Shown piece by piece: positions 51,606-56,894 of a DNA stretch of 59,477 nt. The notes under the pieces were generated by a model. It was not told where the DNA came from. It ran no database searches and saw only the letters and a program-made list of their open reading frames with translations. Position 1 is the first letter of the stretch. Every line of letters begins with the position of its first letter. Source of the stretch: Trueperaceae bacterium (GTDB lineage: Bacteria > Deinococcota > Deinococci > Deinococcales > Trueperaceae); NCBI GenBank assembly GCA_019454765.1, contig JACFNR010000013.1:1-59477 (forward strand), read 5' to 3'. Made by a program: the position numbers and the translations under genes.

Positions 51606-51694
51606 CGCACCCGGCAACCACCGCCGGGCCGGCTCAGGGGCGCCGTTCGCCCCGCCGGGCCCGGCGGCGCGGACCGCGGCACCAGGAGGAGAAC
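51545..51694 (+). promoter_or_regulatory. Structured 5' leader of the lysine operon
   Basis: First hairpin: GCCTC (51545-51549) with GAGGC (51580-51584), enclosing CGGTCGC (51552-51558) with GCGACCG (51566-51572). Second: CCGCCGGGCC (51621-51630) with GGCCCGGCGG (51658-51667), enclosing GGGGCG (51637-51642) with CGCCCC (51648-51653). The second ends about 16 nt before the AGGAGG ribosome binding site. It does not resemble the lysine riboswitch. An attenuator or protein-binding leader is possible. Confidence 0.5.
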
Positions 51695-51855
51695 ATGCAG
51701 CAGATCGACACCCCCCACGGACGACTCGAGATCGACCCGGCCGCGCTCATGCTCGGTGAGCTGCTCGTCACCGACGAGGGCGCGGAGCTCGAGGTGGTCG
51801 GCCTCGACCCACTGAGGTTCGAGCTCGCCCCGGAGGAAGCCGAGGACTGGGGCGA

Positions 51856-51859
<4 letters not shown>
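51695..51859 (+). CDS. lysW: LysW amino-group carrier protein, without cysteines
   Basis: The 54-residue acidic protein reads [20 protein letters not shown], then [20 protein letters not shown], and ends EEAEDWGE. The C-terminal EDWGE, whose final Glu is coupled to alpha-aminoadipate, and the central [13 protein letters not shown] are those of Thermus LysW. The two CxxC zinc pairs of Thermus LysW are absent: the first is DTPH and the second is replaced by TDEG. AGGAGG lies upstream of the ATG, and the stop overlaps lysX (GTGA). It carries pathway intermediates from LysX to LysK. Confidence 0.93.
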
Positions 51860-54540
<2,681 letters not shown>

Positions 54541-54544
<4 letters not shown>

Positions 54545-55752
54545 ACCCGCCGTTAGGCGACCCCGCCGGCGGCGTGAACGTGGCAGCCGTCGGCGCCTCC
54601 GTCCTGGAGCGGGAGGCGCGGCACGCCCCCACGTTGTACGCGCAGTCGACGGCCTTCGTGAGGGGCGAGGGCGTGAGGCTCTACGACGACGCTGGGCGCG
54701 AGTACCTCGACTTCATGGCGGGCATCGGGGTGGCCAGCGTGGGTCACGCCAACCCGCGCCTCGCCGCCGCCGTGGCACGCCAGGCCGCACGGCTGATCGT
54801 CTGCCCGCAGAGCCAAGCCAACGACGTCAGGGCCGCCCTCCTGGAGCGGCTCTGCGCCCTCGCCGGGGCGCCGGAGGGGCGCGTCTTCCTCTCGAACTCG
54901 GGCAGCGAGGCCAACGAGGCCGCCATCAAGTGGGCCCGGGCGGCCACCGGTCGGACGCGCGTGGTGGCCGCCAAGCGCGGCTTCGCGGGCCGCACGCTCG
55001 GGGCGCTGAGCCTCACCTGGGAGCCCACCTACCGCCAACCGTTCGGGCCGCTGCCAGGCGAGGTCGAGTGGGTCGCTTTCGGCGACGGGGAGGCGCTCGC
55101 CGCCGCCGTGGACGCCGATACGGCCGCGGTCGTGCTCGAGCCCGTCCAGGGCGAGGGGGGCGTGCATCCCGCTCCCGAGGGCTACCTGGCGCTGGCGCGC
55201 CGCGTCACGGCCGAGCGGGGCGCGCTGCTGGTGTGCGACGAGGTCCAGTGCGGCGTCGGTCGCACCGGGGCGTTCCTCGCGTCGCGCGCGGCGGGCGTGA
55301 CGGCCGACATCGTGACCCTCGCGAAGGGGCTCGCCGGCGGCGTCCCGATCGGGGCGACGATCATGGCGGACGCCGTGGCGCGCGCCATGCCGCGGGGCGG
55401 GCACGGCTCGACGTTCGGTGGCAACCCCTTGGCCTGCGCCGCCGCGCTGGCCGTCCTCGACGAGATCGAGGAGTCCGACCTGATGACGAACGCGGCAGCG
55501 ATGGGGGAGCGGCTGATGGCGGGGCTCCGCGCCATCGGGAGCGAGCGCGTGCGCGAGGTGAGGGGGCGCGGGCTGATGGTCGGCCTGGAGCTGAGGGAGC
55601 GGGCGGCGCCGGTCGTGGCGGGCCTGAGGCGACGGGGACTGCTCACGGTCCTCGCGGGCGCCACGGTGGTCAGGTTCCTGCCGCCGTTGACGGTGGACGC
55701 TGCGGACGTGGACAGCGCGGTGGCGACGGTCGCAGCGGAGCTGGCGGCGTGA
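54541..55752 (+). CDS. lysJ: LysW-aminoadipate semialdehyde aminotransferase (ArgD homologue)
   Basis: The 403-residue class III PLP aminotransferase has YLDFMAGIGVASVGHANPRL, FLSNSGSEANEAAIKWARAA, LLVCDEVQCGVGRTGAFLAS, the PLP Lys in DIVTLAKGLAGGVPIGATIM and HGSTFGGNPLACAAALAVLD. It converts the carrier-bound semialdehyde to carrier-bound lysine. GTG 54541 overlaps the lysZ stop; the longer open frame upstream is inside lysZ. Confidence 0.94.
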
Positions 55753-56894
55753 CACCGCTCGCAGCGCCGCGGCCGCCCTTCGGGGTCGCCCCGAGCGGGG
55801 GCGGCGTCATCGGGGACGCCGAGGCCGTTGAGCTCCTCAGGCGCGTGGTGGCCACGCCGAGCCTGTCGGGGGAGGAGGGCGCCGTGGCCGCGCTGCTGGT
55901 GGCGGCGGCGGGGCGCGGTGCGGCGCGCGCGGAGGTCGACGCGGCCGGCAACGCGGTGGCCACCTGGGGCGCCGGCCCGCTGGCAGTGACGTTCCTCGGG
56001 CACATGGACACGGTTCCGGGCACGATCCCCGTGCGCGTGGTCGACGGCGTCCTGCACGGCCGCGGGGTGGTCGACGCCAAGGGGAGCCTGTGCGCCGCGC
56101 TGGTCGCCGCCACGCGGGTGGGGCCCGCCGTCTGGGAGCGCCTAACCTTCCGGCTCGTGGGTGCGGTCGAGGAGGAGGCGGCGAGCAGCCGCGGTGCGCG
56201 CCACGCGGTGGCCAGCCTGCCGGCGCCCGACCTGGTGATAGTGGGGGAGCCCAGCGGTTGGGAGCGCTACACCCTCGGCTACAAGGGCCGTCTCGGGGTG
56301 ACGGTCACGGCGCGGCGCCCGTCGGCGCACTCCTCGCGGGAGGAGCCGAGCCCCGCCGAGGTCGTGCTCGACGCCTACGCGGCGTTGCGCGAGTGGGTGG
56401 GGCGTGACAACGCGGCGGCCAGCGAGGTCGGCGAGGCGCCGCCGCTGTTCGACCGTCTGCAGGTCGCGCTGCTGGGCGTTGACTCGGGCAGCGACGGGCT
56501 GGAGGAGTGGTGCGAAGCGCGCATCGGCCTGAGGCTCCCGCCCCGCTGGGCCGGCGCCGCGCTCGTGGCCGCGCTCGACGACCTGCTTCGCGCCGCCGGA
56601 GTGACCGCCAGCTTCACCGAGGCGTGTGACGCCCACAGGGCGAGCAACCGTTCGGTCCTCGCCCGCGCGTTCCGGGTGGCGATCCGGACGTTCGACGGCC
56701 GGCCGACGCCGACGCTCAAGACCGGCACCTCCGACATGAACGTCGTCGCGCCCAGTTGGGACGTCCCGATGGTGGCCTACGGGCCGGGCGATTCGAGCCT
56801 CGATCACACGCCGGAGGAGCGCCTGCCCCTGGGCGAGTACCTCCTCGCGGTGGACGTGTTGGAGCGGGTCCTGACCGAGCTGGCGGGCGCGTGA
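55749..56894 (+). CDS. lysK: LysW-lysine hydrolase (M20 peptidase family)
   Basis: The 381-residue M20 metallopeptidase shows LLRRVVATPSLSGEEGAVAA, FLGHMDTVPGTIPVRV (zinc His and Asp), GRGVVDAKGSLCAALVAATR, VGAVEEEAASSRGARHAV (catalytic Glu) and KTGTSDMNVVAPSWDVPMVA. It releases lysine from LysW, completing the pathway. GTG 55749 overlaps lysJ. The first ~20 residues are Pro/Gly-rich and not conserved. It is the last gene of the operon. Confidence 0.93.
   Translation: MTPLAAPRPPFGVAPSGGGVIGDAEAVELLRRVVATPSLSGEEGAVAALLVAAAGRGAARAEVDAAGNAVATWGAGPLAVTFLGHMDTVPGTIPVRVVDGVLHGRGVVDAKGSLCAALVAATRVGPAVWERLTFRLVGAVEEEAASSRGARHAVASLPAPDLVIVGEPSGWERYTLGYKGRLGVTVTARRPSAHSSREEPSPAEVVLDAYAALREWVGRDNAAASEVGEAPPLFDRLQVALLGVDSGSDGLEEWCEARIGLRLPPRWAGAALVAALDDLLRAAGVTASFTEACDAHRASNRSVLARAFRVAIRTFDGRPTPTLKTGTSDMNVVAPSWDVPMVAYGPGDSSLDHTPEERLPLGEYLLAVDVLERVLTELAGA

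What the first reader, a model, noticed from the sequence alone, without database searches (positions are those of the whole stretch)
51695..51859. LysW carrier protein with no zinc-binding cysteines
The 54-residue protein has the LysW C-terminus (EDWGE) and central [13 protein letters not shown] but none of the four Cys that fold Thermus LysW around zinc. The first CxxC is DTPH, and the second pair is replaced by TDEG. The other five pathway genes are intact and overlap in one operon, so the carrier is presumably functional and folded without the zinc ribbon, or with a different D/H/E ligand set. This bears on how LysX, LysZ, LysY, LysJ and LysK recognise the carrier. The Thermus comparison is from memory.
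Basis: partly seen in the sequence, partly recalled or inferred. Interest (0 to 1): 0.7.

Follow-up and report, generated by a model that had tools for sequence, protein, structure and literature searches.

The report
Zinc-free LysW carrier protein in Trueperaceae
In most members of one bacterial family, the small carrier protein used to build lysine has lost all four cysteines that normally hold its zinc atom, yet the gene is conserved and predicted to fold the same way, so the zinc looks dispensable for this carrier.

Summary
Window 51695-51859 encodes a 54-aa LysW ortholog with no cysteine, first gene of a tightly overlapping lysW-X-Y-Z-J-K operon. It is no sequencing error: the same form occurs in 27 of 32 LysW-bearing Trueperaceae genomes searched, including the finished Truepera radiovictrix type-strain genome; five relatives keep four Cys. 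No second, Cys-bearing carrier was found in the window genome. The gene is under purifying selection, and AlphaFold (no templates) gives a confident fold (pLDDT about 94-95 over the globular part) whose best PDB matches are zinc LysW structures. The two zinc knuckles are replaced by tight-turn sequences (TPYG and [TS]D[DE]G); no conserved alternative ligand set exists, so a zinc-free fold is much likelier than a swapped D/H/E site. A second, differently built Cys-less LysW exists in Deinococcaceae-like genomes and in Meiothermus granaticius, whose LysX is 98.6% identical to that of a relative with a Cys4 carrier: a natural carrier swap.

The parts
51684..51691 (+). Shine-Dalgarno sequence of lysW (AGGAGGAG)
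   Evidence: sequence
51695..51859 (+). lysW, 54-aa carrier protein without cysteine
   Evidence: TIGR01206 55.2 bits; PF21344
51710..51721 (+). codons T6-P7-H8-G9, which replace the first zinc knuckle CPEC; predicted turn of hairpin 1
   Evidence: alignments; model
51770..51781 (+). codons T26-D27-E28-G29, which replace the second knuckle CxxCG with one residue deleted; predicted turn of hairpin 2
51842..51856 (+). C-terminal EDWGE; the last Glu is the attachment point for the substrate in characterised LysW
   Evidence: sequence; invariant; role from PMC10433800
51856..52701 (+). lysX, ATP-grasp ligase, with the GSWGR motif that recognises EDWGE
   Evidence: TIGR02144 347.6 bits; motif
52698..53732 (+). 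lysY (argC-type reductase)
   Evidence: TIGR01850 324.6 bits
53729..54544 (+). lysZ, [LysW]-aminoadipate kinase
   Evidence: NF010659 418.5 bits
54541..55752 (+). lysJ aminotransferase
   Evidence: best match NF042418 LysJ 441.5 bits (under its cut-off 700); TIGR00707 over its cut-off
55749..56894 (+). lysK, [LysW]-lysine hydrolase
   Evidence: NF003367 394.4 bits, cut-off 363

Best explanation
This is an ordinary LysW by descent and genomic position that has become a zinc-free protein. In characterised LysW two CxxC knuckles bind one zinc and staple two beta-hairpins together. Here each knuckle is replaced by a tight beta-turn sequence (TP[YH]G; [TS]D[DE]G, one residue shorter), and the hairpins are held by ordinary turn geometry and core packing (inferred). 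The parts the enzymes are known or likely to use (the acidic ELEV strand, the AP linker and the C-terminal EDWGE with its terminal Glu) are unchanged, so LysX, LysZ, LysY, LysJ and LysK can handle it as they handle the zinc form. The change happened inside Trueperaceae from a Cys4 ancestor (one event is compatible with the trees) and independently in a Deinococcaceae-like lineage by a different route. Shown here: sequence, conservation, selection, operon, absence of a second carrier, distribution. Predicted: the fold. Inferred: that no metal is bound, that it is loaded and processed normally. Not established: that the product in this particular genome is lysine.
For: Ortholog of LysW by curated model and by operon. 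27 Trueperaceae genomes carry the Cys-less form and 5 the Cys4 form. The T. radiovictrix type strain (finished 3,260,398-bp chromosome) has it in a complete lysS-T-U-W-X-Y-Z-J-K cluster, with no other LysW (its only other hit is a thioredoxin). No other Cys carrier in the window genome. Median pairwise dN/dS 0.25 over the whole gene, 0.14 for residues 18-54, 0.05 for 45-54. AlphaFold from Cys-less sequences only, no templates: mean pLDDT 89.7, 94-95 over residues 1-40, five strands, flexible tail. Foldseek: the best PDB matches are LysW chains; 5eio_C TM 0.74 by target length, 1.9 A. Ligand positions are not metal ligands in any conserved set. Nearly the same LysX (275/279 identical) sits with a Cys4 LysW in one Meiothermus and a Cys-less LysW in M. 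granaticius. LysX of Cys-less and Cys4 Trueperaceae differ consistently at one conservative K/R column only.
Against: AlphaFold may reproduce LysW folds from training, and it cannot prove stability without metal. The first hairpin evolves faster in the Cys-less group (residues 1-17 dN/dS 0.63, against 0.10 in Cys4 Thermaceae), which would also fit partial disorder. The model of the second Cys-less type is of low confidence (mean pLDDT 69.9). No biochemistry exists here. The missing homocitrate synthase leaves the pathway's function in this genome open.
Confidence: 0.8

Rival explanations
1. The protein still binds zinc or another metal through a different set of ligands (D5, H8, D27, E28 or similar).
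For: In the window sequence D5, H8, D27 and E28 lie near the old ligand positions; the Sulfolobus LysW in 3vpb reads ...EHECG..., consistent with a His at one ligand position, and three-Cys LysW are described (PMC10433800).
Against: Position 5 is D, E, S, R, T, V or A, and position 8 is Y in 18 of 26, H in 6, F or Q in one each; the gapped equivalents are invariant T6 and G9, T/S26 and a deletion. Only D27 and an acidic residue 28 are conserved, next to each other in one turn, which is not a four-ligand site.
Confidence: 0.07
2. The protein is intrinsically loose and folds only on its enzymes; the tail alone matters.
For: Faster evolution of residues 1-17 (dN/dS 0.63); the EDWGE tail is the most constrained part.
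Against: Residues 18-44 are still constrained (0.18) and T6, G9, D14, L20, G21, E22, V25, D27 are invariant; confident globular model.
Confidence: 0.1
3. A decaying or repurposed remnant: the operon no longer makes lysine in this genome, and the carrier drifts.
For: No homocitrate synthase ortholog in the window genome or in any searched genome of its genus, including a single-contig one; no lysS, lysT or lysU beside lysW.
Against: All six genes intact and overlapping; purifying selection; the WITNTARGG and GSWGR motifs of LysX unchanged from Thermus; the Cys-less form also occurs in genomes that do have the lysSTU genes: G084, G098, G108, G109.
Confidence: 0.1
4. Sequencing or assembly error, or a hidden second LysW with cysteines.
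For: The genome is a 93-contig draft, 97.4% complete.
Against: Same state in 27 genomes, including the finished T. radiovictrix genome; no other LysW-like hit in the window genome with three different queries.
Confidence: 0.02

Closest known systems
LysW of Thermus thermophilus (PDB 3wwl, 3wwn, 5ein, 5eio) and the archaeal LysW/ArgW (5k2m, 3vpb)
   Same: Ortholog: same operon partners, length, ELEV strand, AP linker, EDWGE tail; best fold matches of the predicted model.
   Different: No zinc ligands: both knuckles replaced by turns, one residue deleted. Characterised LysW have four or three zinc-binding Cys (PMC10433800).
Second Cys-less LysW type (FENPE[ST]G / DDETG, 57 aa) in G006, G007, G008, Meiothermus granaticius (L074) and MAG L062
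   Same: LysW upstream of lysX with no Cys in the protein.
   Different: Different replacement sequences, no deletion, different place in the trees; hence an independent loss.
C- (zinc-free) forms of bacterial ribosomal proteins such as S4 and L31
   Same: A zinc-binding protein whose Cys are lost while the function is kept, with zinc and zinc-free forms exchanged between lineages (PMC3087516).
   Different: Those can coexist as paralogs, some under zinc control; here one single-copy carrier gene.
AmCP-like LysW carriers of Streptomyces
   Same: LysW-type carriers with EEDWGE tails.
   Different: The two Streptomyces plasmid copies read here keep the two CxxC pairs.

Membership tests
LysW equivalog family (TIGR01206) | score over the curated cut-off | tested here: met
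   55.2 against 53.2 bits, over residues 12-54 only
LysW equivalog family (TIGR01206) | C-terminal EDWGE with terminal Glu | tested here: met
   sequence
LysW equivalog family (TIGR01206) | operon with lysX, lysY, lysZ, lysJ, lysK | tested here: met
LysW equivalog family (TIGR01206) | ATP-dependent loading of the amino acid on the terminal Glu by LysX | not testable with these tools
   needs purified proteins
Zinc-ribbon proteins (PF21344 Zn_ribbon_LysW as a structural class) | two CxxC knuckles (or three Cys plus another ligand) that bind zinc | tested here: not met
   0 Cys in the proteins of 27 genomes; no conserved substitute ligands, although the sequence scores 31.6 bits (cut-off 27)
Zinc-ribbon proteins (PF21344 Zn_ribbon_LysW as a structural class) | fold of the LysW globular domain | tested here: met
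   predicted only: pLDDT 94-95 over residues 1-40, TM 0.74 to 5eio_C
Complete alpha-aminoadipate lysine pathway in this genome | homocitrate synthase LysS | tested here: not met
   only LeuA-like (31%) and CimA-like (37%) hits in the 97.4% complete genome
Complete alpha-aminoadipate lysine pathway in this genome | homoaconitase LysT/LysU and homoisocitrate dehydrogenase | tested here: inconclusive
   lysT and lysU not in the window; the rest of the genome and homoisocitrate dehydrogenase not searched (quota used)

The most novel reading that the evidence does not exclude
LysW lost its zinc twice by different turn designs, and in the homocitrate-synthase-free Trueperaceae the zinc-free carrier and its five enzymes now work on aminoadipate from another source, or on another substrate, so that both the carrier and the pathway's input have changed.
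Probability: 0.3. Interest if true: 0.65.

Novelty: new variant of a known kind. Interest (0 to 1): 0.5.

Why it matters
LysW is the model amino-group carrier protein, and the characterised ones are described as zinc proteins. Natural zinc-free versions, evolved twice, would show that the metal is scaffold and not part of enzyme recognition, and they give ready-made reagents: a Cys-less LysW from a cultured type strain (T. radiovictrix) and a Meiothermus pair in which nearly identical LysX enzymes face a zinc and a zinc-free carrier. A metal-free, Cys-free 54-residue carrier would also be convenient for engineering. The missing homocitrate synthase raises a separate question about what these operons feed on.

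Tried and rejected
Alternative metal ligands: rejected on conservation. Hidden second LysW: not found with three queries; other hits in relatives are a thioredoxin, a two-ribbon ORF next to lysW and LysW-like ribbons without EDWGE. Missed upstream start with Cys: none. Several separate losses inside Trueperaceae: both trees break up the Cys-less group, but one clade is not rejected (AU p 0.251 rpoB; 0.155 LysX), so I do not claim it. Co-adaptation of LysX: one conservative column, and 39 of 500 random groupings reach that count. Homocitrate synthase candidates on contig C30 are LeuA/CimA-like neighbours of an ilv-like cluster, judged by identity, position and size only. No record of the genus Deinococcus could be recognised among the class genomes; one plasmid copy in Deinococcus sp. 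NW-56 is Cys4. Papers on the T. thermophilus LysZ-LysW and LysY-LysW complexes are not held, so contact residues were not mapped.

Full report
What is there. The ORF at 51695-51859 encodes a 54-aa protein without cysteine, preceded by a strong ribosome-binding site. It is a LysW by NCBIfam TIGR01206 (55.2 bits, cut-off 53.2) and by Pfam PF21344. It is the first gene of lysW-lysX-lysY-lysZ-lysJ-lysK, each start overlapping the previous stop by four bases; the five enzymes have their expected families as best matches. LysX keeps GSWGR, the motif reported to recognise EDWGE (PMC10433800), and WITNTARGG as in Thermus.

How far it extends. Among 39 genomes of the family (Trueperaceae, by the named relatives), 27 have a Cys-less LysW, five (G074, G095, G096, G097, G099) have four Cys, and seven gave no full match. 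A sequencing error is therefore excluded. The window genome has no other LysW and no Cys-bearing LysW-like paralog.

Ligands. Across 26 Cys-less Trueperaceae proteins the first knuckle is replaced by invariant T6 and G9 around P7 and Y/H8, the second by [TS]D[DE]G with one residue deleted. Counted without gaps, the four positions are a mixed position, Y/H/F/Q, invariant V and D/E. Neither reading gives four metal ligands. Both replacements are typical tight-turn sequences (from general knowledge of beta turns), and the AlphaFold model places turns there: strands 2-6, 9-13, 23-25, 31-37 and 40-44, pLDDT 94-95 over residues 1-40, a flexible tail. The best PDB matches of the model are LysW chains (3wwn, 3wwl, 5eio, 5k2m, 3vpb). 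The limitation is that AlphaFold neither models zinc nor proves stability, and it may have learned the LysW fold.

Selection. Median pairwise dN/dS is 0.25 over the gene, 0.18 for residues 18-44 and 0.05 for 45-54; residues 1-17 reach 0.63, against 0.10 in Cys4 Thermaceae. The first hairpin seems to have been freed from some constraint by the loss of the zinc, while T6, G9 and D14 stay fixed. Synonymous sites are partly saturated and the pairs are not independent, so these are rough values.

Evolution. In an rpoB tree the Cys4 Trueperaceae lie near the base and the Cys-less ones mostly form one large group; in a LysX tree the Cys4 lineages fall inside a mixed subclade. One Cys-less clade is not rejected by either data set. 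Since the outgroups are Cys4, loss is the direction. A second Cys-less type, MAKIKFENPESGAIIELENPELGEIVIDDETGAEFEV..., occurs in three f3 genomes beside a Cys4 sister family and in two Meiothermus-like genomes. It uses different sequences and no deletion, so it is taken as an independent event. In M. granaticius (L074) the flanks and lysX match a Meiothermus MAG (L064) at 92.7% and 95.7% DNA identity and LysX is 275/279 identical, but the roughly 680-bp stretch with lysW and its upstream neighbour does not align, apart from the end of lysW; L064 has a Cys4 LysW and L074 a Cys-less one. This is a natural swap of zinc and zinc-free carriers on nearly the same ligase. Outside Deinococcota, 27 LysW from genomes (mostly Chloroflexota, some archaea and others) and the two Streptomyces and one Staphylococcus plasmid copies read here all have the two CxxC pairs.

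The T. radiovictrix locus has lysS-lysT-lysU directly upstream of lysW. In the window a magnesium transporter gene (mgtE) lies there instead. A homocitrate synthase ortholog is found in 10 of 39 Trueperaceae genomes; it is absent from the window genome and all its searched congeners, one of them a single contig. All 39 have ArgJ. LysX differs consistently between the two groups at two conservative columns only. So in this genome the carrier operon persists without the known entry enzyme. Non-orthologous supply of aminoadipate, scavenging, or a changed substrate remain possible. The Cys-less form itself does not depend on this, because G084, G098, G108 and G109 have the Cys-less LysW and the lysSTU genes together.

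Verdict. No paper found in the held library describes a Cys-less LysW; subscription papers could not be checked. It is a new variant of a known carrier, with precedent in zinc-free ribosomal proteins (PMC3087516).

Noticed in passing
window genome G000 and 28 other Trueperaceae genomes; contrast L276:5220-6452: No homocitrate synthase ortholog although lysW-lysK is intact; lysS is present in only 10 of 39 genomes, and in nine of those lysT and/or lysU lie beside lysW.
   Followed up: partly
L029, L203, L204, L206 (upstream of lysW): A roughly 100-aa ORF with two zinc ribbons (eight Cys), whose first half resembles LysW, sits directly upstream of lysW in Thermus, Meiothermus and f3 genomes; it lacks EDWGE and is absent from the window.
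   Followed up: partly
L242-L245, L215, L217: A Cys4 LysW-like ribbon of about 66 aa without EDWGE, elsewhere in a few Trueperaceae and Meiothermus genomes; function unknown.
   Followed up: no
L287 (NZ_CP026518.1, 190992-197096): A Deinococcus sp. NW-56 plasmid carries a whole lysS-T-U-W-X-Y-Z-J operon with a Cys4 LysW.
   Followed up: no
L290 (NZ_CP043848.1, 30368-36535): A Staphylococcus epidermidis plasmid carries lysW, a RimK-type ligase, an aminotransferase and an argC-like reductase: a possible carrier-protein biosynthetic cluster outside lysine synthesis.
   Followed up: no
L074 against L064: Sharp break of DNA similarity around lysW and its upstream ORF between otherwise 93-96% identical flanks, suggesting replacement of a short cassette.
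   Followed up: partly
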